A stretch of 64,000 nt of DNA from Gautieria morchelliformis (lineage: Eukaryota > Basidiomycota > Agaricomycetes > Gomphales > Gomphaceae): positions 124,001 to 188,000 of the forward strand of contig WHVA01000075.1 in NCBI GenBank assembly GCA_015179125.1, written 5' to 3'. The position numbers and the translations under genes are program-made. The notes beneath the pieces were generated by a model. The model saw only the letters and a program-made list of their open reading frames with translations, was not told the origin of the DNA and did not search any database. Positions 9,811 through 46,537 of the stretch are shown here, one piece after another (the first letter of the stretch is position 1; the number at the start of each line of letters is the position of its first letter).

Positions 9811-11067
9811 TGTCATGACCAGTCTAATTTGTATACCCAGTAACGTTGACACCCCACTTTTACGTTCTCCCTGTTTGCTCCTCGCCGAATGTGCCGAATG
9901 TTTATTTGCTTTCGCATCATTCTCATGTAGCAGCGCTACCTGTACCCAATCAACGCCTTCTCCCCGGCTCGATGGTCCATCGCGGGTCTCCTCACCTCCC
10001 TGGCTCAAACCCCGTCGGGTGCTCCTCTGATCGGATGGCACAACTCATTTATTTCCTGTACCCAGTTAGTCCTATTACCCATTTCCCCAGTCCTCCTCTA
10101 TATTCACTTGGCTTCACCCTCCCCTTGGGCCAAGGCTCTTTGATGATCATTCTATTTCGCCCTTTGCCGCATTTCGCCGAACAACCATTCGCTGCTCACA
10201 TCATTCGCCAGCAGGCACACCATCAAACATGATTGACATCCCCTACCCGGCATGATGGCTCGTCACTGGCTCCATCAGCTTCTCGATCCAACCCCTTTGG
10301 GTGTTCATATGGCCAGGATGCATTCGCAGGATGTCCTACCCATAGGTCATGTGGGATCAACCCAGTAGACGAAGAGTCTGTGCAGGGTAGCATATATGCG
10401 GGTCCCAAGACATGGTTTCGTACATAGGTGCTTTCACCACCTTTACTCTCCATCGTTTCATATTCACACTCCTCCCTCACTCTATTGTATGTTTATCTCA
10501 TCTATTTTGTATCATGACTACGCACCCCTATCCAACCCTGACAAATGATGGCCTCTTTCCTATTCGCTGATACCATATGTGCATTCGATATAAGTAGTTT
10601 ACATTCGCATGTATATTCCCCAGTTCAATTATCATATGTCTATCTTGTGCAAACTTGACCTCGCTGTGACTATCGTCTTTAGCCTTCTCCTGTAGATTTC
10701 TATCTTCGACCAGAAGAGGACTTAGGCATCACTGGTGAGTTCTCATACTTCATCTTTGTTACCTTAGCCTTCAAACTATTTGCTGTGCTGTCGGCGAAGG
10801 GCTCCAAAGGAGCGCCTTCGCCGGCGAAGGGATTGTCGCAACTTAGACAACTCTTCCGTGACACCTTGCACATTACATTGTCAAGTGCCACGGGCTATTT
10901 CGCTATGACTGTAGATAGGGTGAGCTCCGTTCGGGCCACCCTCTCATCTTGTGAACATTTATTGGTTTACCCTCTTTGCCGAATGGCATGCTTATTCGCA
11001 CAAGTTATTCGGGCATTCCCTGTGTTCACTAATACACAATATTAACACCTAAAAACCAATCTTGACA
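9811..11067 (+). mobile_element. 5' LTR-1 of the plus-strand gypsy fossil
   Basis: It starts TGTCATGACC and ends AATCTTGACA. It belongs to a longer LTR-1 subfamily with an extra ~250 bp near its start, shared with 41182-42426. It has TATAAGTA at 10589-10596 and the AGTTCAATTAT motif at 10622-10632, which is complementary to the putative primer site at 11070-11080. Confidence 0.9.
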
Positions 11068-12577: not shown

Positions 12578-13074
12578 GTGTCAATATTGGTTTTCAGGCG
12601 TTAATATCATGTATTAGTGAACACAGCGAATGCCCGGATAACTTGTGCGAATAAGTATGCCGTTCAGCGAATAGGTGAACCAACAAATGTTCACAAGATA
12701 AGAGGGTTGCCCGAATGGAGCTTGCCCTATCTACAGTCATAGCGAAATAGCCCGTGGCACTTGACGGTATAATGTGCAAGGTGTCACGGAAGGGCTGTCT
12801 AAGTAGTGACAATCCCTTCGCCGGCGAAGGTACTCCTTCGGAGTGCTTCGCCGACAGCACAGAAAATGGTTCGAAGGCTAAGGTAACGAAGATGAAGTAT
12901 GAGAACTCACCAGTGATGCCTAAGTCCTCTTCTGGTTGAAGATAGGAATCTCCAGGAGAAGGCTCAAGACGATGATCACAGCGAGGTCAAGTTTGCACAA
13001 GATGGATGACGTACGATAATTGAACTGAGGAATGTACATGCGAATGCAAACTACTTATATCGAATGCTCGTAAG

Positions 13075-14430
13075 TGTCATGATTCATTTATTCTGCGAAT
13101 CATCCCCCAGCACACAGCGAATGACCTCCTGAACCAGTGAATGGCTTCCTGAACCAGCAAATATCTTGCCAAAATATTCGTCGCCATACTGCTTTCGCAT
13201 TCGCTATTCGCATCATTCCTGCCAGGACGCCAGATGTTGGGGCCCTCATCCATCATAGAACCCATCATCTGTTAAACTCCCACTCCATGACAGACCCACA
13301 TGCTCAGGATGCATTCGGATAGTGTCAGTTGCAGCCTCCATGCAGGTTGGACTCAATGGGACTTGTACCACTGCAGGGCAGGACGAATTAGCTTCGCTGT
13401 AGTTTTCACTACACAGTTGTCATGACCCATTCATTTCTTGTATCCAGCTATCCCTGTTTTCCCTTTCACCACTCTGCCATGTTCGCTCGTCTTCGCTCCA
13501 TTCACTCCTTGCTCCATTCACTATTCGCCACATTCGCCATATGACCATTCGCTACTTGTATCATTCGCCAGCAGGCACACCATCAAACACGATCGACATC
13601 CTTTACCTGGATTGATGGTTCATCACTGGTCCCATCATCTTCTCAACTCAACCCCCTTTAGGTGTTCCTATGGCCAGAATGCATTCGCGGGGCATCCTAC
13701 CCGTAGGTCATGTGGGATCAACCCAGCAGACGAAGAGTCCGTGCAGGGTGGGGTATATGCAGGTCCGAAGGCGTGTTTTCGTACATAGGGGCCTTTGCCC
13801 TCTTTCCTCTCTGTCGTTTCATGTTCGCACCCCTCTTCCATTCTATTGTATGTCTATTTCATCTATTATGTATCCTGACCGCGCACCCCTATCCAACCCT
13901 GACTCCAGACGGCCTCTTTCCTATTCGCTAGCACCATATGAGCATTCAGTATAAGTAGTCTACATTCGCATGTATATTCTCCAGTTTAATTATCATACGT
14001 CGTCCATCTTGTGCAAACTTGACCTCGCTGTGATCATCATCTTAAGCCTTCTCTTGGAGATTCCTATCTTCGACCAGCAGAGGACTTAGGCATCACTGGT
14101 GAGTTCTCATACTTCATCTTCGTTACCTTAGCCTTTGAAGTATTTTCTGTGCTGTCGGCGAAGGGCTCCGAAGGAGCACCTTCGCCGGTGAAGGGATTGT
14201 CGCTACTTAGACAGCCCTTCCGTGACACCTTGCACGTTGTATCGTCAAGTGCCACAGGCCATTTCGCTATGACTGTAGATAGGGTGAGCCCCGTTCGGGC
14301 AACCCTCCTATCTTGTGAACACTCATTGGTTCACGTATTCGCCAAAAGGCATACTTATTCGCACAAGTCATTCGGGCATTCGCTGTGTTCACTAATACAT
14401 GATATTAACGCCTAAAAACCAATCTTGACA
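13075..14430 (+). mobile_element. Solo LTR, long LTR-1 subfamily
   Basis: It begins TGTCATGATTC and ends AATCTTGACA, with target duplication GTAAG (13070-13074 and 14431-14435). About 340 bp at its start are unlike the other copies, and a second TGTCATGACCC occurs at about 13418 inside it, so it is either a longer subfamily or a fusion of two LTR starts. Confidence 0.88.
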
Positions 14431-19848: not shown

Positions 19849-21005
19849 TGTCAAGATTGGTTTTCAAGTGTTAATATCGTGTATTAGTGAACACAGCGAA
19901 TGCCCAAATAACTTGTGCGAATAAGTATGCCGTTCGGCGAATAGGTGAACCAATGAATGTTCACAAGGTAAGAGGGTTTGCCTAAACGGGGCTCGCCCTA
20001 TCTACAGTCGTAGCGAAATAGCCCGTGGCTCTTGACGATGCGGAAGGGCTGTCTAAGTCTCGACAATCCCTTCGCTGGCAAAGGTGCCCCTTCGGAGCCC
20101 TTCGCCAACAGCACAGAAAATGGTTCGAAGGCTAAGGTAACGAAGATGAAGTATGAGAACTCACCAGTGATGCCTAAGTCCTTTGCTGGTCGAAGATAGA
20201 AATCTCCAAGAGAAGGCTTAAGACGATGATCACAGAGAGGTCAAGTTTGCACAAGATGGATGACGTATGATAATTGAACTGGGGAATATACATGCGAATG
20301 TAAACTACTTATATCGAATGCTCGTACGGTATCAGCGAATAGGAAAGAGGCCGTCACGAGTCAGGGTTGGATAGGGGTGCGCAGTCATGATACTAAGTAG
20401 ATGGAATAAACATACAATAGAGTGAGGGAAGAATGCGAACGTGGAACGACGGAGAGTAAAAGGGGGCGAAGGCACTTTATGGACAAAACCATGTCTTGGG
20501 ACCCGCATACATGCTACCCTGCACGGACTCTTGGTCTACTGGGTTGATCCCGCACGATCTATGGAAAGGACGTCCTGCGAACATACTTTGACCATACGAA
20601 TGCCCAATGGGGTTGGATTTAAGAAGACGATGGGGTTAATGATGAACCATCACGCCGGGTGAATGGTATCGATCGTTTTTGACGGTGTGCCTGCTGGCGA
20701 ATGATGCGAGCGGCGAATAGCCGTTCGGCGAAATGCAAGGAAGGGCGAACAGAAGTGACATAGAGGAGGAGAGGTCGAGGTGGAGGGCGAAGCTGAGCGA
20801 ACACTGAGGAGGTGGTAGGCCTGGTGATGACTGTCAAGTCAGCCCCAAGACGTCGATCGTGCGTTTGACGGCACGGCTGTAGTAGTTGGCGCGAACAGCG
20901 AGTTGGTTGCCGAACATGACAATGGTGATCGGAACGAACACGAAGGTGGTGTGAGAAAATGGGAAAACTGAGCTTCTGAGTATGGGAAATAAATGTGTCA
21001 TGACA
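19849..21005 (-). mobile_element. Solo LTR, family LTR-1
   Basis: It reads TGTCAAGATTGG at 19849 and ends GTGTCATGACA at 21005 on the plus strand, with target duplication ATCGA (19844-19848 and 21006-21010). Inserted in the integrase of the minus gypsy. Confidence 0.92.
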
Positions 21006-21412: not shown

Positions 21413-21418
21413 CAACAG

Positions 21419-21987
21419 AGGATATTCACATTGACAACAATGTATATTCTTCTAGGATATATTAGATATCTTTTAAAATATCAGCCCTAACCAAATTCAT
21501 AATCCATCATTTTGTGCAACTTGTATATTGTGGACATCCTAAATTTTTTTGAATGTTCTGATATTTTAAAAATATGGTTGTATGTGCTAAAGTATGGTGT
21601 GTATTGATATAACAGAGCAATTTCAGAGAGGATGTGGATGACTATATATTAAAAGTATACATGAAACATGTTAGATGTACAATCACAGAATATAGAAGCA
21701 AGTATGGACAATACCTGTACTATATTATTATATATGGTTGAGAGATCTGATTAGAAGGTATGTTTAAAATAATATGCATGTATAGTACAAAGATATATAA
21801 CTATTGATGTTTAGACAATGGGGTATACACCCTTTCCTGGGGGAGCAGCAGACTGTGAGAAAGAACTTTGGGGCTAGGATTAAGCATGCCTTACAATTGC
21901 TGGCAACTGCCTCAATTTTAATATATTTTATGAAATATAGATGAGCTAAGCTATATATACATATATATGACATTTATAAACATCCTC
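21419..21987 (+). repeat. Left terminal direct repeat of the AT-rich transposon
   Basis: About 569 bp, repeated in the same orientation at 29236-29782. It has one 22-bp segment (near 21433-21454) that the right copy lacks, and otherwise only a few differences. A 69-codon frame inside it (21764-21973, minus) is identical in both copies but has no recognisable features, so I take it as a repeat shadow. Confidence 0.9.
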
Positions 21988-22406
21988 CTAGGAAAACATT
22001 TTAAAAACTATCAATGATATATTCTAAGGCTCTCCTAAAAAGAATTGAGGTTCTCCTTTTATTCCAAGATCTCTTTTTATTCTTTCAAATATTTCAGGAA
22101 ATCTGCTTAGTATCTTATTCACATCTATTTCTCCTTCTCTTTTGGGACCTTCATATATTGTCAATATAAAAGGGATATCTTTACCTTTTTCCTTTCTGTC
22201 TTCTTGTCTTTCTAAAGGGAATCTTACTATAGGACAGTCAAGACCTTTTATGACTCCAACTAGCTTACTGAGCTAATTGGAATCATTTTCAACATTTTTC
22301 ATTCCTAATCTAGTACATTGTTCCATCATTTTTTCTTCTGTTACTTTCCATCCTACTAGAGTTCTGAAGTACATATCCAATATCCTTTTAAAGAATTGTA
22401 GGTATA
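21988..22406 (-). other. AT-rich transposon interior, degraded coding sequence
   Basis: No intact ORF. Read on the minus strand it looks like the decayed 3' continuation of the nuclease-like gene to its right. Confidence 0.3.
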
Positions 22407-23024
22407 TCAATTTGTTTCTAAGCTCATAACCAATCTTTTCAACTTATCAAGATCCTCCTTATATGTACACCTGTAAATATCAAATGATCCATATACTTGT
22501 ACTATTTTTACTACCTCCACCTTTTTACCATAACTCTCACTATCCCAAGAACTTCTAGGTTTTTGGGGTTTCTGCTTATGATTTAAATTCTTATATTTAA
22601 TAAGTCTCCAATATCCCCTATAGCAGCTATATACACTTTCATAATTGGTATCTAGGAATAGTACTGTCACCTGATTTATCAGTTGCTCCTGAGTATCCTT
22701 GAAGATCTTTTCAAGTTCTTCTGTAGTTTTAACACTTCTTTTTATTTCTACTATTAAAAATGTAGTACTATTTATAGTGTTATTATTCTAAGTATATTTA
22801 GTAACAGTAAAATCAGGGATTAAATGTCTTACATTATCCTCTCCATCTCTATTTTCAACAGCATAAAAAAATGCATGTTGAGGAGTTATTATCATAGTAT
22901 TGGCAAAGTAACCCATGAGAATTATGGTCCAAGGAGCATACCAGTAACACTCCAAGTTATTGGAATTAGTATACTGGTCTATAGCAACTTCAATAGAGGT
23001 TCTCAGAAGAGCCCTTATATCCAT
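22407..23024 (-). pseudogene. PD-(D/E)XK nuclease-like gene of the AT-rich transposon
   Basis: Two neighbouring minus-strand frames (22788-23024 and 22407-22670) read like consecutive parts of one protein. The first ends with RHLIPDFTVTKY; the sequence between them encodes TTFLIVEIKRS. An I-P-D-F strand followed by a hydrophobic strand ending E-x-K is the signature of the PD-(D/E)XK nuclease fold (catalytic D, E and K). The rest (YGSFDIYRCTYKEDL) is not diagnostic. The reading frame is not continuous. An enzyme that cuts DNA would fit a transposon, as YqaJ-type nucleases do in ISL2EU elements, but assignment rests only on motif spacing. Confidence 0.5.
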
Positions 23025-23149
23025 CTCTATCTTCTACAAAACACTCTACTCTTATCATTCAATATATTGAAAAATGATACATATTGTGATAACATTTTAT
23101 ATAGATTATCACCTTACAAAAATATAGTTGTATAAAGAGGTTTTTCAAA

Positions 23150-24150
23150 GCTCACCAACCTGAAAATTTTATTCTTTTCTAGTATATAAACAGGGTTAGT
23201 CTAGTCAATTATTTGTTTTAGTGCTTCAAAATTTTGGTTTATTGGTATTCTATGCATTAACTGATAAGGTCCCGCTCTCCGCCCCTTTTTATCATAAAGA
23301 ATAGTTGCTGTCCTCCCTGGAATATCTACTACTGTAACAACACCCTTCATCTCCTGCTGTAGGGATATATGTCATTGTCAATCCAGCTTGTATATTATAT
23401 TAAACTCAGTTTGTATTCATTTTTTGTTTTGACAGGATTCAGCTCCTACCCTCTATTAGTCATTGAATCATATGATTATTATCTACAGTCGCAGAATAGA
23501 CTTGACTCTTTTTTGTATGCCTTTTGCTATATATTTCAGCTTGTAAGTAGCTAATTATGAGATCACTCAGCATCAAGGACCTAAAGTTTCAGACTGACAT
23601 TTCTTATAAATCGTGGTAGTCCTCTTTTCATGAGGTGGAGGAATACGTGACCCAACGGCAATAATATCAAACAGTAAGATGCTGTCATGTTCAGTTACTG
23701 TATATGTGTTGGTGCCTGCTGATATGTGTAAGGGTTTCTTTCTTATCTATAGTTCATTAACATACCTTTTTGCATGGCCTTGTTTGATAGTAAAGAGTAT
23801 CTTAGCGCTGTAGATAATATTTGTTCAGTGCCTATTATCACAGAATGACATAATATTATACACTAAGCAACTATGGGCATGTAGATAAATGCATTTCTAT
23901 CAGGTTTGATGATATAATACCATGACATACTACATAAAAACTGATTTCACAAAGTTGTCAATTCATATGGATGAACCATGGTTATCAAAAGCATTGTTCG
24001 TAAGATATCTACCTTTTTTGGTAGTACCTGTTAGCAACTCAGGGTTATGGCAGGGAAGGTTCGGTAGAGTTATTAGAAAGCTAGAATCAAATTCACTCTC
24101 TCAGTGAATTTATTGTCACTGTTATATTAATACAATACCTAGAATCAAAT
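23150..24150. other. AT-rich transposon interior, no clear gene
   Basis: A short minus-strand frame around 23180-23350 (KGVVTVVDIPGRTATILYD) looks coding but is unrecognised. The rest holds only short frames. Confidence 0.3.
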
Positions 24151-24206
24151 TCACTACATGATTTTCAGTCAACATGCTATGAAAATACAAAGAATACTAC
24201 TCGCCT

Positions 24207-24243
24207 CTCTCAGTGAATTTATTGTCACTGAGAGAGGAGTACT
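24207..24243. repeat. Hairpin (CTCTCTCAGTGA / TCACTGAGAGAG)
   Basis: A 12-bp perfect stem with an 8-nt loop. A partial copy of the same sequence lies about 110 bp upstream next to a repeated AGAATCAAATTCACT motif. A similar hairpin exists in the solo LTR at 30666-31208. Confidence 0.7.
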
Positions 24244-24509
24244 ATCCTGTCTCAGAAGGCATATACGTGCACCCGGCCCTTTAGCGCTCAAGAGCTCGCG
24301 CGTCGAAGTCATTTCAAACTCCGCTGGGTGCAGCCGCTTGTGAAAGTAGAGATAACAAAATGAAATGGAGAGGTAGGGAGTGACTGGAAAATTTCGAAAA
24401 TAATCAGAGGAGTGAGTGCATGGTACAAGGACAATGTGAGAAGAGATTGAAACACCATACAATAAATCGAACATATTATGCTTGATTTTGGTGCAGGAGC
24501 ATAAATGCA

Positions 24510-25139
24510 CCCAACAGTACCAAGACAACCGGAGACAGGTCTGTTGTTAAAATAGGAGATCTGATAATAAATATAGAAGTCTCCTTCTGTAATGACAAAA
24601 AGGTTTTCTTTGAACAATGGTCAGTTTCTAGTGCACAATGGCTTACCCTTCCAACTCACTACGGTTCTGATGAGCTGTATAATTTAATAATAGGCAGCAT
24701 CTCAGGTTTTAGGGTTTTGGAATGGGTGTTAAGTCCCGATTCCCATTGTATAATTGTTGCAAAGGTTATATTGGATGGTAAAACAAAGTATCCTTTAGTT
24801 GTAGGATATGATAAATGTAATGAATGCTGTATATATGATAGTCTGATAAAAGGCATGATGATTGCCTTATATTCTAACTCTCAACCACAAGAGACAATTA
24901 CTGTCTATGGCATACTTTTACTACAAGATGGAAGGATGAAGGTCTACAAAACAAATAATGAAAGGAGACATCGAACTCCTATTATTTTATATAGACCATT
25001 AAAAATCATAGAAGATTCAAAGGAGGTCTGTGACATTGTCAAATATATGCTTAAGCATATACTCAGAAGTACTACAAACCCCTCTAAATATCTGATTAAC
25101 CAGACCAGGGTTCGAACCTGGGACCCCGTTAGTATATAG
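24510..25139 (+). CDS. Unknown protein of the AT-rich transposon
   Basis: An open plus-strand frame runs from about 24510 to 25139 without an early ATG; it may be a downstream exon, since GGTGCAG just before it could be a 3' splice site. Visible stretches include VKIGDLIINIEVSF, VFFEQWSVSSAQW, KYPLVVGYDKCNECC and ITVYGILLLQDGRMKVYK, alternating hydrophobic strands and charged turns as in a mixed alpha/beta fold. I do not recognise the family. The last ~30 codons run into the tRNA-like sequence at 25095-25170 and may not be part of the protein. Confidence 0.45.
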   Translation, partial: PNSTKTTGDRSVVKIGDLIINIEVSFCNDKKVFFEQWSVSSAQWLTLPTHYGSDELYNLIIGSISGFRVLEWVLSPDSHCIIVAKVILDGKTKYPLVVGYDKCNECCIYDSLIKGMMIALYSNSQPQETITVYGILLLQDGRMKVYKTNNERRHRTPIILYRPLKIIEDSKEVCDIVKYMLKHILRSTTNPSKYLINQTRVRTWDPVSI

Positions 25140-25168
25140 GGTGCTTTACCAACTAAGCTATTTGGTCT
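25095..25168 (-). tRNA. tRNA-like sequence (probably a tRNA relic or tRNA-derived repeat)
   Basis: On the minus strand it shows a tRNA layout: GACCAAA acceptor start, D-arm GCTTAGTTGGTAAAGC, a CCC/GGG anticodon stem, T-arm CCAGGTTCGAACCCTGG and a TCTGGTT acceptor end. A-box and B-box are both good. The anticodon stem is weak and the loop too long to give one anticodon, so I do not think it is a working tRNA. It may be a pol III-type repeat head carried by the AT-rich transposon. Confidence 0.5.
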
Positions 25169-25179
25169 ATTATGTTTTA

Positions 25180-25690
25180 CAACTTGGTGAGGTAATATAT
25201 GAGTCATAAGATAGTGTACAAGCTTTGTTTCTACATTTTGATATTTATCATCAAGAATCTTAATAGTAACATTGCTAAATATTATGGTTTTGACTCTTCA
25301 TATAGAATGACTTATATAACCAATGCATTCACTTTCATGGGTAGTAATTATACTTTATTCTATCTCTAACATCATAAGATCTGATTTTGGTGGAAATACA
25401 TTCATATATCAGTTACCATGGAAGATGATGATAATTCCAGTACTTGAATTAATATTTAGAAACAAACATGTATGATACATAATTCATCAATCTAATAGGA
25501 TTTAAATTCAACTTCCTGGTTAAAGAGGAGAGTGGACTCAGATTCCATGATAATAATACCATCTTATGTCTTTATACTCTATGGGTCATTTGGAAATTCA
25601 GCTTATATGCTGTCCCAACATTTTATCAATGGATGGACAAGGTTCTATGACTCACAAATGTAGAGGTCACAATACCTCATCTTCTAGGAT
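25180..25690. other. AT-rich transposon interior, nothing recognised
   Basis: Only short frames; no motif, repeat or RNA structure that I can support. Confidence 0.3.
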
Positions 25691-27385
25691 TATTGGTGGG
25701 CACCTATCCTGAAGAATATTTAACATTGATCTCTCATCTACCTTTGATCTATCCTTTTTTTCCTTGGCCATATCTAACATTGATCTCTCATTATTGGAAT
25801 CTAATCTATTCTGCTTGCGTATCTCATCATCAATCTCAAATATCGATCGAGTATCGATATTTCCTTTCTCATCAAGAGTATCAAATGTTCAGATCTCAGC
25901 TAGTTTTGATTGCTTATCTGGTTTTGATCTAGTTTTACTCATTTGAAGAGACTTATTTACCAAACTATCCTTTGTACTATTCTTATCTTGTTGTTTTGTT
26001 AGGAGGTTTATTTGATTCTTATCATTGATCATGTAAGGGCAACCCTGGCTGGTTGTGGAGATCACACTACCACACAACTGACAAGGGGAAATCCAAAGTA
26101 TGTATAAATGAATAGAGCATACAAGAGAGGGGATTCTCACCTGACAAGGGGAAATCCAAAGAGAAAAGTCTAAGGACCCCCAATGTCAGCGAGCCCGTAT
26201 TATACTATGCTGCGCAGCCAGGGACAACACTTGGCACCTGCCATCAACCCTGCATCTCCCTGACCACCCTGGCCCTTGATCGACCCTTGATGCCACCTAT
26301 TACGCGAGTCGCTTGATTTCTGACACTGTTCCGAGAGTGGAAGTCGGAAATTGGAGTGGAACTGGCAAGGCAAACAGAACTGGTGGAAGTTCTCCCAGAA
26401 GCGGAATCATTTCCGAAAGCGGAGGCGGAGATGGAATCGGAACCGGAACCGGAGTCGGAACCGGAACCGGAGTCGGAACCGGAACCGGAGTCGGAACCGG
26501 AACCGGAGTCGGAAATGGAGTCGGAACTGGGTGTGGTGTCGGAACTGGAAATGGAAAACAGGGTGTCCCCTGACAGATCACCTGATATGATACTAGATAA
26601 TTACGTCTAAGATATGCTGTTAAAATGGATACTTCTTTTCCATCTATATATACATCCATATCTGCCAACTCATAGTAACTATCTTCCGAATCATGTATTC
26701 TACAACTTGCTGAGATTCTTTTGATATCTCTAGCATGATGTGATTTATCTGGTTGTTCTGTCAGCAGATTTATTTGATTATTATCATTGACCTCATATGA
26801 TACTAGATCATCCTCTTCATCATATGCTGTTAAAGGGGATATTTCTTCTCCATCCATAAATACATCCATGTCTGCTAACTCAAAGTAATTATCTGCTGAA
26901 TTATATACCCTACAATTTTCTGTGATACTATTGATATCAAATTTAATGTTTCTACCGCTTATTTCTTCTTGAGAAAGCTGAGATTCCTTTTGAGCATGAA
27001 CCATTGGTTCTGGTTTGTGGTGTTGTTTTGTCATAAAATTGATTCGATTATCTATGCTATCATATGATACCAGGTCTTTCTTTTTACAGTACACTGTAGA
27101 CAACTTGCGAGGTTTTTCATCTATAAAGACATGCATATCCTCTAGATTATAGCAATTATCTTGTGAATAATAAAATATAAAACATCCAGCCATCTTTCTA
27201 ATTCGCAATCCTACATGCTTATTATTTTTAATCTGCTCTCTTAATTCTATAATCTCTCTATGTTGTTCCTTAGATATCTGTTTGAGATTTGATATTATCT
27301 CATCTTTTTCTTCTATCCATTCTGTGATTCTGTCAATCCTTTTAGAGAGCTTGACAATCTGGGCTTCCATGGCTACTAGACCCAA
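25690..27385 (-). CDS. Coiled-coil protein with internal ~80-residue repeats, AT-rich transposon
   Basis: The intact frame 26300-27385 (361 codons) starts with a coiled coil (IVKLSKRIDRITEWIEEKDEI, about residues 10-55), followed by three tandem ~80-residue repeats, each with a core like YYELADMDVYIDGKEVS and a tail LVSYEVNDNNQINLL. The Pro/Val/Thr-rich end (from about residue 270) is encoded by the 544-bp insertion 26032-26575, not by the original gene. Beyond the insertion the minus strand continues the repeat (NDKNQINLLTKQQDK, near 25990-26025) and a charged tail down to about 25690. The fold and function are unknown; it may be an accessory DNA-binding or assembly factor of the transposon. 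Confidence 0.6.
26032..26575. mobile_element. 544-bp insertion with TGT...ACA ends (solo LTR or MITE-like)
   Basis: It begins TGTAAGGGCAACCCTG and ends GTGTCCCCTGACA; the ends form an imperfect ~16-bp inverted repeat. The flanking GATCA (26027-26031 and 26576-26580) is a 5-bp target duplication. It is GC-rich inside an AT-rich host and contains a GGAACCGGAGTC minisatellite (about 26435-26520) and a duplicated ACAAGGGGAAATCCAAAG motif (26080-26100 and 26144-26162). 5-bp duplication with TG..CA ends favours a small LTR; the inverted ends also allow a MITE. Confidence 0.75.
26435..26530. repeat. Minisatellite GGAACCGGAGTC
   Basis: A hexamer/dodecamer array of GGAACCGGAGTC units, about five to six copies with degenerate flanks. 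Read on the minus strand it encodes the VPVPTP repeat at the end of the adjacent ORF. Confidence 0.85.
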
Positions 27386-27799
27386 TTTACAATTTCACAG
27401 AATCAATTTTCAATACTGACTCATCTAATCTGGTTTTATAATTAAATTGTCAACTAGGTCCTTGTCATTGCTAGCACTGTTGTTTAAATTACATATCATC
27501 ACAAAGACTGTTATTATAATCATGCTTGCTAACTACAAAGTTTGGTTTGATTGATTTATCTCCATCTGTTAGTGTATATGTCATCACTTATTGTGGAAGG
27601 TAATCTAGACCAGTAGTTGAGAATATAATTCCAGTAAAATTCTATATTCCCTTTATGTTGTTTATGGTTTTATTTAGAGAGTTGAATAGTGAATGCAATA
27701 TAAAATCGAAATATATAAAGTCGTCATCTTATCAACAAACTCAACTATACAACACTCCTTTTTCCGACTCATAGTTGTAGCTGAGAACTTTCCTTTATA

Positions 27800-29135
27800 A
27801 TGAATGAGTCACTCCTTGAAGAATATCAAATGTTGATGAATGAACATTGGGGGTTTCATGATGAAAAATGGCCTTTGTTGAAGCCAACTAAATTTCATAG
27901 ATCAGGACTAAAACCTGTTTCTGAAATAGATCTCATCAAGAAAAGAGTATTAGAGAAGCTTGGACCAATACCAGTGTTTTTCTTCCTAGTAGTGTTGTTT
28001 CCATTCAAGCACCATCCAGGTCCATATCGAAATGTAGAGAAGGGACTATTAATACTCTATCATCTGCTTGAAGGTTGTACATTTGATGATATGAACAGAT
28101 TTATACTTGGGAGTGATCCATCAGAGTTTTTTTGGACATGAAAAGGACCTTAATAATGACTTAAATGACAAAATCATTGATTTGTTGGCTCATATGTTTT
28201 CCAACATAAGGATTAGAATATTATCTGCAAAGGATAATAATAAGGAAGAATTATTCAACACAATAACCTTATTCATTGATGGTCATGACACAAGAGGAAC
28301 AGAAATAGGAAGATCATCTAAAGTAAAATGGTCACATAAACACAGAAATTCTGGAATGAGAACTCAAGTAATTATGGATTTTCATGAGATGGCTTTGTTT
28401 GTTTCTGATTCATTGCCATGTAGCCACTCTGATGGAGTAATGTTCACAGAAATGGACTTAAGAGATAAGATGGATAAGGCAGATCGTATGGCTCTTGATG
28501 GAGGCTATACACTATTTGTGAAACAAGTAGTAAAGCAAGGTAGATTGAAAGAAATGAATTTCTGCCATCCAATTCAGAAGCAGAAGAATGCTGAACTATC
28601 AGATATGAAGAAGCGCTACAATGAAAGATTTGGTAGTTTCAGATCAAAGATAGAAAGCTTATTTGGAGAGTTAGGAATGACATTTAAGAAGTTAAATAAT
28701 CAGAAGCCTGTCCAAACATCAAATCCTAAGATATTCTCTTTGCAGTTTAGATTAGCATGCTTGCTGCTTAATATCAAACGGTTTGTTAAATTAGGAGAGC
28801 TCCAAGCACAACCTAATCATATGTCATGGATGGAGAGCCATTTTGACTATCCATCAACTGATACCCTCGACTTTGAGTCACTGAGAATCTCAACTTTAAA
28901 GGATATTACAGAGGATGCAAAGAAAATGTCTAAGTATCAAGCACAATTATTAGCAGGTACAGATACAAATGAATCTGACCAAGATATTGAAGATACATAT
29001 GAAGTGAACAAAATAGTAGATCATAGGACAAAAGGAAAGAGAAAAGAATACTTAGTTCAATGGAAAAACTATGAAGATCACACTTGGGTAAGGGAGGAAG
29101 ATTTTGATACAACGAGAAAATTCAATGTTTCCTGA
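27800..29135 (+). CDS. DDE transposase with C-terminal chromodomain
   Basis: Two overlapping frames (27800-28141 and 28107-29135) meet at a run of seven T (28127-28133). The first has a helical N-terminal part (KHHPGPYRNVEKGLLILYHL). The second carries a DDE_Tnp_4-like (IS5/Harbinger-type) core: D in TLFIDGHD (residue 58), D in ALDGGYTL (131) and E in KIESLFGELG (183), a normal second-D-to-E spacing. A chromodomain follows at 298-339 (YEVNKIVDHR ... EYLVQWKNYEDHTWV), which in other proteins binds methylated histone H3. It would be the DNA-cutting/joining enzyme of the AT-rich transposon. The frame change could be a mutation, a sequencing slip or slippage at the T run. Confidence 0.8.
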
Positions 29136-29235
29136 GCATTTCTTGAATATTTGTTGGTGCTACTTTTGCAATTTCTGCAGGAGTGTATACAGGACTACAT
29201 TAGACGTCAAAAAAAGAAGGGTAGACACTACTAGG

Positions 29236-29782
29236 AGGATATTCACATAGGATATATTAGATATCTTTTAAAATATCAACCCTAACCAAATTCATAATCC
29301 ATCATTTTGAGCAACTTGTATATTGTGGACATCCTAAATTTTTTTGAATGTTCTGATATTTTAAAAATATGGTTGTATGTGCTAAAGTATGGTGTGTATT
29401 GATATAACAGAGCAATTTCAGAGAGGATGTGGATGACTATATATTAAAAGTATACATGAAACATGTTAGATGTACAATCACAGAATATAGAAGCAAGTAT
29501 GGACAATACCTGTACTATATTATTATATATGGTTGAGAGATCTGATTAGAAGGTATGTTTAAAATAATATGCATGTATAGTACAAAGATATATAACTATT
29601 GATGTTTAGACAATGGGGTATACACCCTTTCCTGGGGGAGCAGCAGACTGTGAGAAAGAACTTTGGGGCTAGGATTAAGCATGCCTTACAATTGCTGGCA
29701 ACTGCCTCAATTTTAATATATTTTATGAAATATAGATGAGCTAAGCTATATATACATATATATGACATTTATAAACATCCTC
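29236..29782 (+). repeat. Right terminal direct repeat of the AT-rich transposon
   Basis: Same orientation as the left repeat at 21419-21987 and nearly identical except for the 22-bp segment absent here. It ends ...CATCCTC next to CAACAG. Confidence 0.9.
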
Positions 29783-30665
29783 CAACAGTGATGCAGAGTC
29801 AAGGATGATGGAGCGAATGAGTTGCCCGGTTTTAAACATTGACTCGAAGTTGTGGGGATTCGCCAATGCGTAAGCACCATCCCCCCTTTAGGGTACATGT
29901 CGCCCCGACAGGTCAATGCATCTGGCTTTGTGCCAAGTTGCCCAGCTCGGTAGCGAATGATGTAGTTGAACCCTGACAGGTGTTCGGACCAACGGACCTG
30001 TCGTCGGGTCAGCTGTTTTGTAGTTGCGAAGTACTCAAGGTTCTTGTGGTCGGAGAGGACGAGGATGACGTGGGATGCCCCTTCGAGGTAGTTTCGCCAT
30101 TGCTTGAAGGCACAAAAGATGGCGAGTAGCTCCTTGTCATAGATCTCATAGTTCATTTAGGCAGGTGCCATTCCTCGCAAATAGAAGGCGATCGGGTGGA
30201 TATCACCATCGGAGGGGGTGATCTGGGAGATGATGGCAGCGATGGCGTAGTCGGAGGCGTCTGTTTCGATGATGATCGGGTTACTCGGGTCGAAGTGGAT
30301 GAGGACTGGGGCCTGTAAGAACGCGGCTTTGAGTGCTTTGAAAGCCTCCTGCTGCTTTGCATCCCAGGCGAACGGAGTATCCTTTCTGGTCAGGCGAGTG
30401 AGTGGCAGGACAATGTCTGAGAATGAAATGATGAATCTTCTATAGAAGTTCGCAAAGCCCAGGAATGGTTGGACTTCGCGAATGTTCGTCGGTACAGGCC
30501 ACTTTGTGATTGCAGCTGTTTTTTCGATGTCCATGGAGACCCCAGCAGGGGAGATGATGAATCCGAGAAACTCAACCCAGTTCAAATGGAAGAGGCACTT
30601 CTCGGGCTTTATGAAGAGGTTGTGCTTCCGAAGACGGGCGAGGACCATTCGGACATGTTCTAAGT
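29783..30665 (-). pseudogene. gypsy reverse transcriptase C-terminal part and RNase H (minus element)
   Basis: RT thumb/connection (VLARLRKHNLFIKPEKC, VEFLGFIISPAGVSMD) leads into RNase H ([53 protein letters not shown]). The AT-rich transposon and the solo LTR at 30666-31208 bound it. Fossil. Confidence 0.88.
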
Positions 30666-33368: not shown

Positions 33369-34398
33369 TGTCAAGATTGGTTTTCAGGCATTAATATCAT
33401 GTATTAGTGAACACAGCGAATGCCCGGATAACTTGTGTGAATAAGTATGCCCTTCGGCGAATAGGTGAACCAACAAATGTTCACAAGATAAGAGGGTTGC
33501 CCGAACGGAGCTTGCCCTATCTACAGTCATAGCGAAATAGCCCATGGCACTTGATGGTATAACGTGCAATGTGTCACGGAAGGGCTGTCTAAGTAGCGAC
33601 AATCCCTTCACCAGCGAAGGTACTCCTTCGGAGTTTTTCGCCGACAGTGCAGAAAATAGTTCGAAGGCTAAGGTAACGAAGATGAAGTATGAGAACTCAC
33701 CAGTGATGCCTAAGTCCTCTTCTGGTTGAAGATAGGAATCTCCAGGAGAAGGCTCAAGACGATGATCACAGCGAGGTCAATTTTGCACAAGATGGATGAC
33801 GTATGATAATTGAACTGAGGAATGCACATGCGAATGCAAACTACTTATATCAAATGCTCGTAAGGTATCAGCGAATAGGAAAGAGGCCGTCGTGAGTCAG
33901 GGTTGGATAGGGGTGCGCAGTCATGATACTAAGTAGATGGAATAAACATACAATAGAGTGAGGGAAGAGTGTGAACATGAAATGATGGAGAGTAAAGGTG
34001 GCGAAGGCACTTATGTACAAAACCATGTCTTGGGACCCACATACATGCTACCCTGCACGGACTCTTCGTCTACTGGGTTGATCCCACACAACCTACGGAA
34101 GGGACCTCCCGCGAACACACTTTGGCCATATGAACACCCAAAGGGGTTGGATTAAGAAGATGATGGGGTTAGTGATGAACCATCACGCCGGGTAAATTGT
34201 ATCGATCGTATTTGATGGCGTGCCTGCTGGCAAAATGTGGGAGCAGCGCATAGCGGTTCGAAGAATGGGGCGAATAGCGAATAGAGTGGACGTCGAGGAG
34301 GAGTGGTCGGAGGGTGAGGCGAACTCTGGTGAAGATGCTAGGGAGTGATGAGGGGGCACGTAGAGGCAGCGGGGTAAGAGAAATAGACAGGTCATGAC
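33369..34398 (-). mobile_element. 5' LTR-1 of the minus-strand gypsy
   Basis: Plus strand reads TGTCAAGATTGG at 33369 and GGTCATGACA at 34398. The outer flank CTATG (34399-34403) repeats 12573-12577. The internal AGTTCAATTAT motif (as ATAATTGAACT at 33806-33816) pairs with the primer site. Confidence 0.92.
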
Positions 34399-35160
34399 AC
34401 TATGCAGCATCCTACCTCAGCGACATTGCCTTGATCTGGTGGCAACCCTTTCTCATTCAGGTCCCAGAACCTGCCATTTGGAGCAACTGGCTTATCTTTG
34501 TTGACGAACTTAACCGTCTTTTCGGTCAGGCCAACATCATTCAGGTTTCCAAGCGAGCTATTCGCAGGCTCAAGATGCTTGACACCCATCGCGTCAATCG
34601 CCACATGACCACATTCGCTGAATTGTCCTCTTACGCCAAGTGGAACGATGCCGCCCTTTACAACGCTTTCAATGACAGCCTTGCCAAGTGCATCAAAGAC
34701 CACATGCTCTCCTATGAACTTCCCGAAGCCTCCTCGATCTGAAGCGTCAGGCTCTTCACATCGACAATCGCTATTGGGAGCGCCAAGGCGAAAAGCAGAT
34801 TACAACCTCTATTCATCCCCCTTCCTCTTCCAAACCATCTTCCACACCACATGCTAACGCTCGACCCAGACCCTCTGCCGCAGCCAAGCCCGATGAACAG
34901 AAAGACCTTTCTGGTATCCTCGATGCTACTGGAGGTCTTACTGAAGCCGAGAAAGAGTGACGAAAAACCAAAGGCCTTTGCCCTTATTGCGGCGAACCCC
35001 CCACACATCACACGAAGGGGTGCTGCTTTCAGGAGCCTGCCTCAACCACTGGCAGGGCTATCTTCACCCTCAAAGATGACCCTCAGGTCGCTATTCTCGA
35101 AGAGGTTCCCGAAGATAGCGAAAGCTCCCCTGCGGAAGATTAGCTCGCGATCCCTCTGTG
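34399..35160 (+). pseudogene. gypsy gag capsid and zinc knuckle (plus element, resumed)
   Basis: This is the second part of the outer element's gag, picking up at the CTATG duplication. It has capsid sequence (ALIWWQPFLIQVPEPAIW, FVDELNRLFGQANIIQ, MTTFAELSSYAKWNDAA) and one CCHC knuckle (CPYCGEPPTHHTKGCCF, near 34980-35030). Broken; fossil. Confidence 0.85.
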
Positions 35161-35530: not shown

Positions 35531-36429
35531 TGTCATGACGCATTTATTTCCTTCCTCGCATTTCGCCGAACAGCCACTCGCTGCTCGCATCATTCGCCAG
35601 CAGGCACACCATCAAATCACGATCGATATCCCTACCCGGCATGATGGCTCATCAGTAGCTCCATCAGCTTCTCGGTCCAACCCCCTTTTGGTGTTCATAT
35701 GAGCAGGGTGCGCTCGCGGGACGTCCTACCCATAGGTCGTGTGGGATCAACCCAGCAGATGAAGAACCCATGCAGGGCGGTGTATATGCAGGCCCCAAGA
35801 CATGATTTCATACATAGGTGCCTTCGCCACCTTTACTCTCCGTTGTTTCATGTTCGCACTCTTCTCTCACTCTATTGTATATTTATTCCATCTACTTAGT
35901 ATCATGACTGCGCACCCCTATCCAACCCTGACTCACGACGGCCTCTTTCCCATTCGCTGATACCTTACGAGTATTCGATATAAGTAGTTTACATTCGCAT
36001 GTATATTCCCCAGTTCAATTATCATACGTCATCCATCTTGTGCAAACTTGACCTCTCTGTGATCATCATCTTAAGCCTTCTCTTGGAGATTTCTATCCTC
36101 GACCAGCAGAGGACTTAGGCATCACTGGTGAGTTCTCATACTTCATCTTTGTTACCTTAGCCTTCGAACTATTTTCTGTGCTGTTGGCGAAGGGATTGTC
36201 ACTACTTAGACAGCCCTTCCGTGACACCTTGCACGTTGTATCGTCAAGTGCCACGGACCATTTTGCTACGACTGTAGATAGGGTGAGCCCCATTCGGGCA
36301 ACCCTCCTATCTTGTGAACATTCATTGGTTCACGTATTCGCCGAACAGCATACTTATTCGCACAAGTCATTCGGGCATTCGCTGTGTTCACTAATACACG
36401 ATATTAACACCTAAAAACCAACCTTGACA
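35531..36429 (+). mobile_element. Solo LTR, family LTR-1
   Basis: Begins TGTCATGACGC, ends CAACCTTGACA, target duplication CAATG (35526-35530 and 36430-36434). Slightly shorter than other copies (the hairpin region is reduced). Confidence 0.92.
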
Positions 36430-36472
36430 CAATGTTACACTCTTCGGCTACCTTCAACACACATTCCAAATC

Positions 36473-37110
36473 CTCGTCCCCGCTATCCTCGGGCTACTTC
36501 CTGGACACGGTGATTGTACTCCTCTCCAACATCTCGGTCCTTCCACCAGGTGTCACTTCTTTGCCTATTCCTATCCCGAATCCTTCTGTTTTTGCACAGA
36601 CGTTCGATGTGGACGGCGAACTATTTCCTCCCCCAGTAAAGCCTATTGAGAATCACTCTGCCGAGTCCTCCATATTGCTGCTCAATACTCGTCCCCGCTA
36701 TCCTTGGGCAACCTCCCGAACACGGCGATTGGACTCCTCTCTAACATCTCGGTCCTTCCACCAGGTGTCACCCCTTCGCCCACTCCTATCCCGAATCTTT
36801 CTGTTTTCACACAGACGTTTGACGTGGACGGTGAACTATTCTCTCCCTCATTCAGGCCTATTGAGAGTCATTCTTCCGAGTCTTCCCTATCCCCACTAAA
36901 AAACCTCGTCCCCACAATCCTTGGGTTATGCCCCGAACACAGCGATTGGACCACTCTATTACATCTCGGTCCTTTGACCAGGTGTCGTTTCTTTTCTTCG
37001 CTCACTCCTATTCTGAGTCATTCTGGCTACGAACAGACGTTCGACGTGGATAGCAAACCATTCCACCTGCCACCTGCGTCCCAAACCACCCCCACGCATT
37101 TTACCCATTG
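36473..37110 (+). repeat. Three ~216-bp tandem units in the gypsy protease linker
   Basis: Units start at 36473, 36688 and 36905 with CTCGTCCCC(G/A)C(T/A)ATCCT, and each contains ACAGACGTT(C/T)GA(T/C)GTGGA. The minus-strand gypsy has one unit at the corresponding place (near 32270-32420), so the array is a local amplification in this copy. Confidence 0.85.
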
Positions 37111-41181: not shown

Positions 41182-42426
41182 TGTCATGACCCGTCTATTT
41201 TGTATACCCAGTAACATTGACACCCCACTTTTACGTTCTCCCTGTTCGCTCCTTGCCGAATGCGCCGAACGTTTATTCGCTTTCGTGTCATTCACACGTA
41301 GCAGCGCTACCTGTACCCGATCAACGCCTTCTCCCCGACTCGATTGTCCATCGCGGGTCCCCTTACCTCCCTGGCTCAAACCCCATCAGATGCTCCTCTG
41401 ATCGAATGGCACAACTCATTTATTTCCTGTACCCAGTTAGTCCTATTATCCATTTCCCCAGTCCTCCTCTATGTTCACATGGCTTCGCCCTCCCCTTGGG
41501 CCATGGCTCTTTGATGATCATTATATTTCGCCCTTCGCCGCATTTCACCGAACAACCATTCGTTGCTTGCATCATTCGCCAGCAGGCACACCATCAAACA
41601 TGATTGACATCCCCTACCCGGCATGATGGCTCCTCACTGGCTCCATCAGCTTCTCAATCCAACCCCTTTGGGTGTTCATATGGCCAGGATGCATTCACGG
41701 GACGTCCTACCCGTAAGTCGTGTGGGATCAACCCAGCAGATGAAGAGTCCGTGCAGGGTGGTGTATATGCAGGTCCCAAGACATGGTTTCATACATAGGT
41801 GCCTTCGCCACCTTTACTCTCCGTCGTTTCATGTTCACCCTCCTCTCTCACTCTATTGTATGTTTATTCCATCTATTTTGTATCATGACTGTGCGCCCCT
41901 ATCCAACCCTGACTCATGATGGCCTCTTTCCTATTCGCTGATACCTTACGAGCATTTGATATAAGTAGTTTACATTTGCATGTATATTCCCCATTTCAAT
42001 TATTATACGTCTATATTGTGCAAAATTGACCTCGCTGTGACTATTGTCTTGAGCCTTCTCCTGTAGATTTCTATCTTCGACCAGAAGAGGACTTAGGCAT
42101 CACTGGTGAGTTCTCATACTTCATCTTTGTTACCTTAGCCTTCGAACTATTTTCTGTGCTGTCGGCGAAGGGCTCCAAAGGAGCGCCTTCGCCGGTGAAG
42201 GGATTGTCGCTACTTAGACAACGCTTCCGTGACACCTTGCACGTTACATTGTCAAGTGCCACGGGCTATTTCGATAGGGCGAGCTCCGTTCAGGCCGCCC
42301 TCTCATCTTGTGAACATTTATTGGTTCACCCTCTTTGCCGAACGGCATACTTATTCGCACAAGTTATTCGGGCATTCGCTGTGTTCACTAATACACGATA
42401 TTAATGCCTAAAAACCAATCTTGACA
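41182..42426 (+). mobile_element. 3' LTR-1 of the plus-strand gypsy fossil
   Basis: Same long subfamily as 9811-11067 (TGTCATGACCCGTC start, CAATCTTGACA end). It is followed by TGATG, compared with CGATG before the 5' LTR. Confidence 0.9.
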
Positions 42427-45176: not shown

Positions 45177-46537
45177 TGTCAAGATTGGTTTTTAGGCGTT
45201 AATATCGTGTATTAGTGAACACAGCGAATGCCCGAATAACTTGTGCGAATACATATGCTGTTCGGCAAATAGGGTGAACCAATAAATGCTCAGAAGATAA
45301 GAGGGCTGCCCAATCGGGGCTCACCCTATCTACAGTCGTAGCGAAATAGCCTGTGGCACTTGACGACATAACATGCAAGGTGTCACGGAAAGGTTGTTTA
45401 AGTAGCAACAATCCTTTCGCCGGCGAAGGCGCTCCTTCGGAGCCCTTTGCCGACAGCACAGATAATAGTTCGAAGGCTAAGGTAACAAAGATGAAGTATG
45501 AAAACTCACCAGTGATGCTTAAGTCTTCCTCTGGTCGAAGATAGAAATCTACAGGAGAGGGCTCAAGACGATAGTCACAGTGAGGTCAAGTTTTGCACAA
45601 GATGGATGTATGATAATTGAACTGGGGAATATACATGCAAATGTAGACTACTTATATCAAATGCTCATACAATATTGGTGAATGGGAAAGAGGCCACCAG
45701 GAGTCAGGGTTGGATAAGGGTGCGCAGTCAGGATACAGAATAGATGAAACACGTATACAATAGAAAGAAGGAGGAGTGCAAATGTGAAATGATGGGGGAA
45801 AAGAGGATGAAGGCACCTATGTATGAAAACACGCCTTGAGACCCGCATATATGTTACCCTGTGACTCTTCATCTGCTGGGCTGATCCCATACAATCTACG
45901 GTTAGGACGTTCTGTGAAAGCATCCCAGCCATATGAACACCTAAAGAGGTTGCATTGGGAAGATGATGGGGTCAGTGTTTTGGAACCCGTTGAACTAAAC
46001 GTAAAACTGTGGTGTTAAACCCAATTCTAAAGTTCAACCAGAGATTTGACTTTACAAGCACACGCAAGCTTTGAAACATTGTTGTCTTTAATTCACTCGA
46101 CCCGCGGTCCTAAGACTCTAGGTAGCTTTCCCCCTTAAAGTATCTGGACCCTTGGACGCCTAATAACATTCTTTGACCTCACAAAGTATTGCACAATCTG
46201 AGAACTACACGTGTTCAGTTAAATCTCTATTGCTACACTTCCTGTACCAATACTGATTCTGATTGTTCACCGGAGTATAATTTCTTAATTGGGTTCTCCA
46301 TTAAAATAGTTTTGAAGCTTGCGTGTGCTTGTAAAGTCAAATCTCTGATTGAACTTTAGAATTGGGTTTAACACCACAGTTTTACGTTTAGTTCAACGGG
46401 TTCCAAAACAGCCCTCTTATCTTCTGAACATTTATTGGTTCACCCTATTCGCCGAAGGGCATACTTATTCGCACAAGTTATTCGGGCATTTGCTGTGTTC
46501 ACTAATACACAATATTAACACCTAACCAATCTTGACA
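45177..46537. mobile_element. Inverted-LTR unit (LTR-1 ends facing outward) with an inner foldback element
   Basis: An LTR-1 piece on the minus strand (45177-45975) and a 127-bp LTR-1 3' end on the plus strand (46411-46537) form inverted termini, both outer ends being the LTR-1 3' end (TGTCAAGATTGG / CCAATCTTGACA). Between them lies a 435-bp foldback (45976-46410). Flanks CCTGG and CCTTG match at 4 of 5 positions. The unit splits transposon genes on both sides. Confidence 0.75.
45976..46410. mobile_element. Foldback/MITE-like element with ~96-bp inverted arms
   Basis: It starts TGTTTTGGAACCCGTTG and ends with its reverse complement; the arms (about 45976-46071 and 46315-46410) differ at only about one position. 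The outer motif GGGTTCCAAAACA is also the 3' end of LTR-2, so it may be built from LTR-2-related ends. No ORF. Confidence 0.85.

What the first reader, a model, noticed from the sequence alone, without database searches (positions are those of the whole stretch)
21419..29782. AT-rich transposon combining direct terminal repeats, a DDE-chromodomain transposase and a nuclease-like gene
The boundaries are exact: CAACAG on both sides, and the gypsy pol resumes directly across it. Terminal repeats of ~550 bp are in direct orientation, as in LTR elements, but the interior encodes a DDE enzyme (D58/D131/E183 in the second frame) fused to a chromodomain, not a reverse transcriptase. A PD-(D/E)XK-like protein and a coiled-coil repeat protein complete the set. 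Harbinger/ISL2EU-type elements pair an IS5-like transposase with an accessory gene, but I know of none with this end structure. The A+T content differs sharply from the surroundings, hinting at transfer from an AT-rich donor.
Basis: partly seen in the sequence, partly recalled or inferred. Interest (0 to 1): 0.9.

Follow-up and report, generated by a model that had tools for sequence, protein, structure and literature searches.

The report
Fungal DNA transposon with LTR-like ends
An 8.4-kb AT-rich mobile element sits inside an old retrotransposon of what looks like a fungus; its enzyme is of the DNA-transposon kind, fused to a chromatin-reading domain, yet its ends are long direct repeats like those of a retrotransposon, a build that our literature searches found only for one group of animal transposons.

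Summary
Two direct repeats (R1 21418-21987, R2 29235-29782) differ by one 22-bp insertion and 2 of 534 further aligned bases; they flank a 7.2-kb AT-rich interior, and CAACA lies on both outer sides. Joining the flanks restores an open gypsy pol frame, so the insertion is exact. Pfam confirms a DDE domain (DDE_Tnp_4, 5e-12) fused to a chromodomain (6e-8). The nuclease call is unproven: no family match above cut-off, low-confidence model, a stop inside. Here the interior begins and ends with CTAG. But this transposase matches PIF/Harbinger-IS5-type profiles, carries a chromodomain and has no CCHC finger. Best reading: a composite-like DNA transposon of the KolobokP kind built on a different transposase, in a fungus. 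Weakness: a single decayed copy; no genome was held and no relative was found in the (viral, bacterial, archaeal) collections searched, so a chance composite is not excluded.

The parts
21413..21417 (.). left copy of target site duplication CAACA
   Evidence: equal to 29783-29787; joined flanks keep the gypsy pol frame open
21418..21987 (+). left long terminal direct repeat R1, 570 bp, begins GAGGATATT and ends AACATCCTC
21432..21453 (.). 22 bp present in R1 and absent from R2
21988..29234 (.). interior (INT), 7247 bp, begins CTAG and ends CTAG, GC 35%
21988..21991 (.). CTAG, first four bases of the interior
29231..29234 (.). CTAG, last four bases of the interior
22027..22443 (-). two further open pieces (22276-22443 and 22027-22272) after the nuclease-like frame, in another frame; may be the rest of that gene or a separate one
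   Evidence: no Pfam match
22410..23033 (-). nuclease-like gene remnant: ...IPDFTV...FLIVEIKRS... resembles PD-(D/E)XK; TAG stop at 22788-22790
   Evidence: by eye; (secondary structure order fits, mean pLDDT 34)
24486..25139 (+). open frame of 217 aa, no relative found
25097..25167 (-). tRNA-like sequence
   Evidence: Rfam tRNA, 42.6 bits
25670..27373 (-). coiled-coil-like (by eye) protein with about three repeats of ~60 aa, interrupted by the insert at 26032-26575
   Evidence: 46-bp, 87% match between the two sides of the insert
26032..26575 (.). 544-bp insert, GC 53%, TGTAAGGG...CCCCTGACA, flanked by GATCA: looks like a solo LTR
27800..29135 (+). transposase gene, in two frames that meet at a run of seven T (28127-28133); not mended here
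28278..28655 (+). DDE catalytic stretch (D62 28278-28280, D135 28497-28499, E187 28653-28655)
28998..29108 (+). chromodomain, presumed cage residues Y302, W323, Y326
29235..29782 (+). right long terminal direct repeat R2, 548 bp, with six AGGAT/ATCCT words
29783..29787 (.). right copy of target site duplication CAACA

Best explanation
A composite-like DNA transposon, LTDR-INT-LTDR, of the kind known from KolobokP but built on a PIF/Harbinger-IS5 type transposase. Shown: the two direct repeats, their own short inverted ends, the exact insertion with a ~5-bp duplication, the DDE-chromodomain fusion, the CTAG at both ends of the interior. Inferred: the transposase binds and cuts the GAGGATRTT ends, which occur at both tips of each repeat, so it can move the whole unit or a repeat alone; the chromodomain steers insertion into H3K9-methylated chromatin such as old retrotransposons; since the interior starts and ends with the same four bases, the repeat itself looks like an insertion into an interior that was once continuous (a circle or a tandem array), so an interior-plus-one-repeat circle that joins a resident repeat by recombination is a likely second route. 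The nuclease-like protein would, as proposed for the KolobokP nuclease, provoke that recombination; this last step is speculation.
For: Direct repeats nearly identical and interior bounded by them; exact empty site in frame; DDE_Tnp_4 5.2e-12 and Chromo 5.9e-8, both above cut-off, IS5 NCBIfam profile 1.3e-5, below its cut-off, chromodomain against PDB chains from 2.9e-7; inverted ends 10 of 13, reached by 0.046% of 200,000 random 13-mer pairs of that composition; AGGAT/ATCCT six times in R2 against a mean of 1.1 in mononucleotide shuffles (2 of 2000 reach it; the interior has 1.8 per 552 bp); CTAG at both interior tips, as TATA in KolobokP-1_MeMe; no reverse transcriptase or gag match in the open frames of the interior that were scanned.
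Against: One copy only; no other stretch like R or INT in the rest of the window, none in viral contigs or genome contigs (viral, bacterial and archaeal, a poor place to look). PHIS elements are mostly reported with 0-3-bp TSDs, not 5; for NuwaII the authors could not decide between TNA (3) and CTNAG (5). The four-base CTAG match alone has a chance of 1 in 256, and, drawn by hand on the sequences, the outer duplication is one base longer than the inner for each of the four ways of placing the repeat's tips. The genes are decayed (stop, frame changes, inserted LTR) while the repeats differ by 2 of 534, which fits mobilisation in trans or recombination as well as a young unit.
Confidence: 0.6

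Rival explanations
1. Chance composite: R is a 550-bp non-autonomous transposon (MITE), and this is one place where two copies bracket a stretch that happens to hold a transposase; or a circle holding INT and one R joined a solo R in the gypsy by homologous recombination, without any lasting LTDR-INT-LTDR lineage.
For: R has what it needs to be a mobile unit of its own (inverted ends at both tips); CTAG at both sides of the interior reads as a target duplication of one R inserted in a continuous INT; no inverted repeat between the two tips of INT was found or is visible by eye; INT looks more decayed than R.
Against: Both outer tips share one duplication and the two repeats differ by 2 of 534 aligned bases plus one 22-bp insertion; the interior is compact, with gene ends about 36 and 99 bp from the repeats, as in a whole transposon.
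Confidence: 0.25
2. A non-autonomous LTR retrotransposon that carries captured transposon genes.
For: Long direct repeats with short inverted tips and a 5-bp duplication are also marks of an LTR element.
Against: Repeats begin GA and end TC, not TG...CA; by eye no TGG-type tRNA primer site at the start of the interior; the purine tract AAAAAAAGAAGGG lies 13 bp from R2, not next to it; genes on both strands; no gag, reverse transcriptase or integrase match in the open frames scanned. The only self-priming match was an all-A+T 9-mer.
Confidence: 0.05
3. A true Kolobok (KolobokP) member in a fungus whose transposase merely scores with the DDE_Tnp_4 profile.
For: Layout, repeat length, TSD length and inner four-base signature agree with KolobokP.
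Against: DDE_Tnp_4 and IS5 profiles match; no CX2C pair in either frame of the gene, hence no CCHC finger; no His-Me finger match in the frames scanned; KolobokP was reported from 7 animal phyla. No Kolobok profile was on hand for a direct test.
Confidence: 0.07

Closest known systems
KolobokP (Kojima and Bao 2022, PMC9587614)
   Same: LTDR-INT-LTDR layout; direct repeats of about 450 or 660 bp (here 548/570, between the two classes); short inverted repeats within each LTDR; RR...YY tips; TSD 3-5 bp; DDE transposase plus an opposite-strand gene (nuclease there, nuclease-like here); interior starting and ending with the same 4 bp in KolobokP-1_MeMe.
   Different: Animal hosts; Kolobok-type transposase, His-Me homing-type nuclease; here DDE_Tnp_4/IS5-type fused to a chromodomain, PD-(D/E)XK-like remnant, extra coiled-coil-like and unknown genes, 8.4 kb instead of 4.0-4.7 kb (autonomous families of Pacific oyster).
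PHIS superfamily (PIF/Harbinger, ISL2EU, Spy, Pangu, Nuwa, PHISTA)
   Same: DDE_Tnp_4-type transposase (that PHIS enzymes belong to this Pfam family is recalled); tips with G/A first; ISL2EU pairs its transposase with a YqaJ exonuclease gene (that YqaJ is a PD-(D/E)XK fold is recalled).
   Different: PHIS groups as read have terminal inverted repeats and mostly 0-3-bp TSDs; no long direct repeats and no chromodomain fusion in the passages read.
Bacterial composite transposons and IS26 pseudo-composites (as discussed in PMC9587614)
   Same: Two mobile end units around an interior, here in direct orientation; possible circular interior-plus-one-end unit.
   Different: There the transposase gene lies in the end units; here it lies in the interior and no gene was found in the ends.
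Chromoviruses (Ty3/gypsy with integrase chromodomain; recalled)
   Same: DDE recombinase with a C-terminal chromodomain, presumed to steer insertion.
   Different: No reverse transcriptase match here; another branch of DDE enzymes.

Membership tests
KolobokP | two long terminal direct repeats of ~450 or ~660 bp around an interior | tested here: met
   570 and 548 bp, direct; the length falls between the two reported classes
KolobokP | short inverted repeats (11-18 bp, perfect or not) at the tips of each LTDR | tested here: met
   10 of 13 positions, GAGGATATTCACA / GAGGATGTTTATA
KolobokP | TSD of 3-5 bp | tested here: met
   CAACA; 4 or 6 bp if the tips are drawn otherwise
KolobokP | solo LTDRs and (LTDR-INT)n multimers in the genome | not testable with these tools
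   no genome held; none in the window
KolobokP | Kolobok-superfamily transposase with CCHC zinc finger | tested here: not met
   DDE_Tnp_4 and IS5 matches, no CX2C pair in either frame; no Kolobok model was on hand
KolobokP | His-Me finger nuclease (reported for most families) | tested here: not met
   no such Pfam match in the open frames scanned
PHIS (Harbinger/ISL2EU/IS5-like) | DDE domain of the DDE_Tnp_4/IS5 type | tested here: met
   PF13359 46.1 bits, cut-off 24.8; IS5 model NF033581 24.7 bits, below its cut-off of 140
PHIS (Harbinger/ISL2EU/IS5-like) | TSD of 0-3 bp (NuwaII: 3 or 5, undecided by its authors) | tested here: not met
   5 bp outside (4 or 6 under other readings), CTAG inside
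PHIS (Harbinger/ISL2EU/IS5-like) | second gene with Myb/SANT (Harbinger, Nuwa) or YqaJ (ISL2EU); Pangu has a second gene without known motif | tested here: not met
   no such match in the frames scanned; the PD-(D/E)XK likeness is by eye only
PD-(D/E)XK nucleases (22410-23033) | core fold with D and ExK on neighbouring strands | tested here: inconclusive
   motif by eye, strand order fits but mean pLDDT 34; no family match above cut-off
LTR retrotransposon | gag and reverse transcriptase, TG...CA ends, primer site and adjacent purine tract | tested here: not met
Chromodomain | fold profile and aromatic cage of three residues | tested here: met
   PF00385 32.9 bits, cut-off 25.1; Y302, W323, Y326 (that these are the cage positions is recalled)

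The most novel reading that the evidence does not exclude
Probability: 0.5. Interest if true: 0.75.

Novelty: new variant of a known kind. Interest (0 to 1): 0.6.

Why it matters
If the unit is a lineage, the composite-like layout is not a quirk of one animal group, and what favours it (recombination between repeats, a nuclease, circular units) becomes a comparative question. The four-base signature at both ends of the interior would be a simple test for how such elements arise, in KolobokP too. A DDE-chromodomain fusion outside retroelements would be another natural case of aiming insertion by histone marks.

Tried and rejected
Relatives: the second transposase frame, a nuclease piece, the 24555-25090 frame and the coiled-coil-like protein against viral contigs (7, 47, 2 and 0 pattern matches, no confirmed relative) and the transposase frame against genome contigs (26 pattern matches, none confirmed); the transposase frame against phages by tblastn: one hit at E 0.9; a 27-mer of R in viral contigs and genome contigs: 0. 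These collections are viral, bacterial and archaeal, so the misses say little about fungi.

Alternative left boundary: MAFFT aligned R1 so that it would begin at about 21440 after a second CAACA. Rejected because the 14 bp GAGGATATTCACAT before it are identical to the start of R2, and because joining at the outer boundary keeps the canonical pol frame open (frame 2); the in-frame reading that the inner boundary seemed to give uses a shifted frame on the right side.

LTR retroelement: rejected (see rivals). RIP as the cause of the AT-richness: TA/AT 0.87 in R, 0.91 and 0.73 in the two parts of INT, 0.68-0.75 in the five large stretches outside; only R and the left part of INT are raised, the genes have low GC3 and remain largely open, so it was not pursued. 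Programmed frameshifting at the run of seven T in the transposase: possible, not testable on one copy. Fold searches were not run: both models had mean pLDDT about 35 (34.1 and 35.5). PHROGs gave only weak hits (best 0.0042, for the coiled-coil-like protein; a transposase family at 0.006 for the transposase). Ten further frames of the interior gave no Pfam match below E 0.1 (made while checking this report). Literature: 10 of 10 searches used; from their listings KolobokP is the only DDE DNA transposon with long terminal direct repeats that I recognised. No supplement was looked at.
Full report
What is there. Two direct repeats bound an AT-rich unit at 21418-29782. R1 (570 bp) and R2 (548 bp) share their first 14 bp, then R1 has 22 bp that R2 lacks, then they differ at 2 of 534 positions. 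GC is 30.5% in each repeat and 35.0% in the interior, 48-49% in the 5 kb on either side. Outside lies CAACA on both sides; because of the neighbouring G and C, duplications of 4, 5 (two ways) or 6 bp can be drawn, and one of the 5-bp readings has symmetric tips (GAGGAT...ATCCTC). Joining the flanks with one CAACA gives an open frame through gypsy pol (frame 2; Integrase_H2C2 on one side and RNase H on the other). The insertion is exact and lies in a gypsy pol that already carries a frame change some 100 bp upstream in the sense of the gene (frames 0 and 2).

Ends. Each repeat begins GAGGATATT and ends AACATCCTC; the two tips match as inverted repeats at 10 of 13 positions (0.046% of 200,000 random 13-mer pairs of the same composition do as well). 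AGGAT or ATCCT occurs six times in R2, against a mean of 1.1 in 2000 mononucleotide shuffles, 2 of which reach six; the interior has 1.8 per 552 bp. Such words may be transposase binding sites (inference). The interior begins CTAGGAAAAC and ends GACACTACTAG: the four bases next to each repeat on the inside are CTAG. Read around a circle, R is thus flanked by CTAG...CTAG, as if R had been inserted into a continuous interior. By chance a given four-base match has odds of 1 in 256.

Genes. The right part encodes a transposase in two frames that meet at a run of seven T at 28127-28133. The second frame has DDE_Tnp_4 (46.1 bits, E 5.2e-12, cut-off 24.8), also DDE_Tnp_1 (24.6, cut-off 23) and Chromo (32.9, E 5.9e-8, cut-off 25.1); the first frame has no match. 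NCBIfam's IS5 model gives 24.7 bits, below its cut-off of 140. D62 and D135 have 72 residues between them, D135 and E187 51. The chromodomain matches PDB chromodomains (best E 2.9e-7, cpSRP43) and has Y302, W323 and Y326 at what I recall as the methyl-lysine cage. For the remaining genes no relative was found: a nuclease-like frame 22410-23033 on the minus strand with one TAG, a 217-aa plus-strand frame at 24486 and a minus-strand coiled-coil-like repeat protein. A tRNA-like stretch lies at 25097-25167. The coiled-coil-like gene is split by a 544-bp TG...CA stretch with GATCA on both sides, most simply a solo LTR of a host retrotransposon; so the interior has been hit by another element, whereas R1 and R2 are almost identical.

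Nuclease call. The motif IPDFTV(...)FLIVEIKRS looks like PD-(D/E)XK, and the model's strand and helix order is compatible, but the mean pLDDT is 34.1 with one sequence in the alignment, and no family or PDB sequence matched meaningfully (PDB for the 22410-22787 piece only). It stays a suggestion.

What it works like. KolobokP (PMC9587614: abstract, Results sections 5 to 9 and the first part of the Discussion read; passages) has an interior with a DDE transposase and, in most families, an opposite-strand nuclease between two direct repeats of about 450 or 660 bp that carry their own short inverted repeats; TSDs are 3-4 or 4-5 bp; solo repeats and multimers are common; and in KolobokP-1_MeMe the interior starts and ends with TATA, of which one copy is left where two interiors abut. 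The unit here agrees in layout, approximate repeat length, tip structure, duplication length and the four-base signature. The authors propose transposition plus recombination between repeats, perhaps through a circle, and I adopt this as the most likely mechanism here. The added chromodomain would aim insertion at methylated chromatin; that this copy sits in a dead gypsy element fits, but one insertion proves nothing.

What it is. It is not KolobokP by the tests made: the transposase matches DDE_Tnp_4/IS5 profiles and has no CX2C pair, hence no CCHC finger; a Kolobok profile was not on hand. It is not a regular PHIS element either: PHIS groups are described with terminal inverted repeats and mostly 0-3-bp duplications, NuwaII being undecided between 3 and 5 (PMC4482050: abstract, first part of Results and the NuwaII section; PMC12730594: passages only). 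So I file it as a new variant of a known kind: a composite-like LTDR transposon with a PHIS-type transposase. The searches in the held library list no other DDE DNA transposon with long terminal direct repeats than KolobokP as far as I can tell from the listings; most subscription journals and Repbase Reports were not searchable, so this is no proof of absence from print.

Limits. No genome was held. The window has no second copy of R or INT (word size 7, E up to 0.1). Searches of viral, bacterial and archaeal contigs found nothing. With one copy, a chance composite or recombination of a circle with a solo repeat remains possible (0.25).

Noticed in passing
1354-2384, 3462-4445, 9811-11067, 12579-13074, 13544-14430, 19849-20791, 33369-34399, 35550-36429, 41182-42426, 45177-45977, 46412-46537: A repeat family of about 1.0-1.3 kb with at least eleven copies or pieces in this window, in both orientations, mostly 80-96% alike (down to 74% between some pieces). 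All 11 looked at share a sharp TGTCA start; 7 of 10 far ends looked at are TGACA. Several lie in the copia and gypsy elements. It looks like solo LTRs or a short non-autonomous element.
   Followed up: partly
26032-26575: Insert of 544 bp, TGTAAGGG...CCCCTGACA with GATCA on both sides and a GGAGTCGGAACCGGAACC repeat inside; likely a solo LTR in the transposon's coiled-coil-like gene; no other copy found in the window outside the transposon.
   Followed up: partly
25097-25167: tRNA-like sequence on the minus strand inside the transposon (Rfam 42.6 bits), with no clear anticodon; a captured tRNA or the head of a SINE.
   Followed up: no
24096-24245: CTCTCTCAGTGAATTTATTGTCACTG occurs twice, 109 bp apart; the second copy is part of a hairpin with 12-bp arms (by eye).
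   Followed up: no
46526-47425: 299-aa open frame reminiscent (recalled) of the large fungal Plavaka/KDZ-type transposases; no Pfam match.
   Followed up: no
36468-36986: Tandem repeat of 215 bp, 2.4 copies.
   Followed up: no
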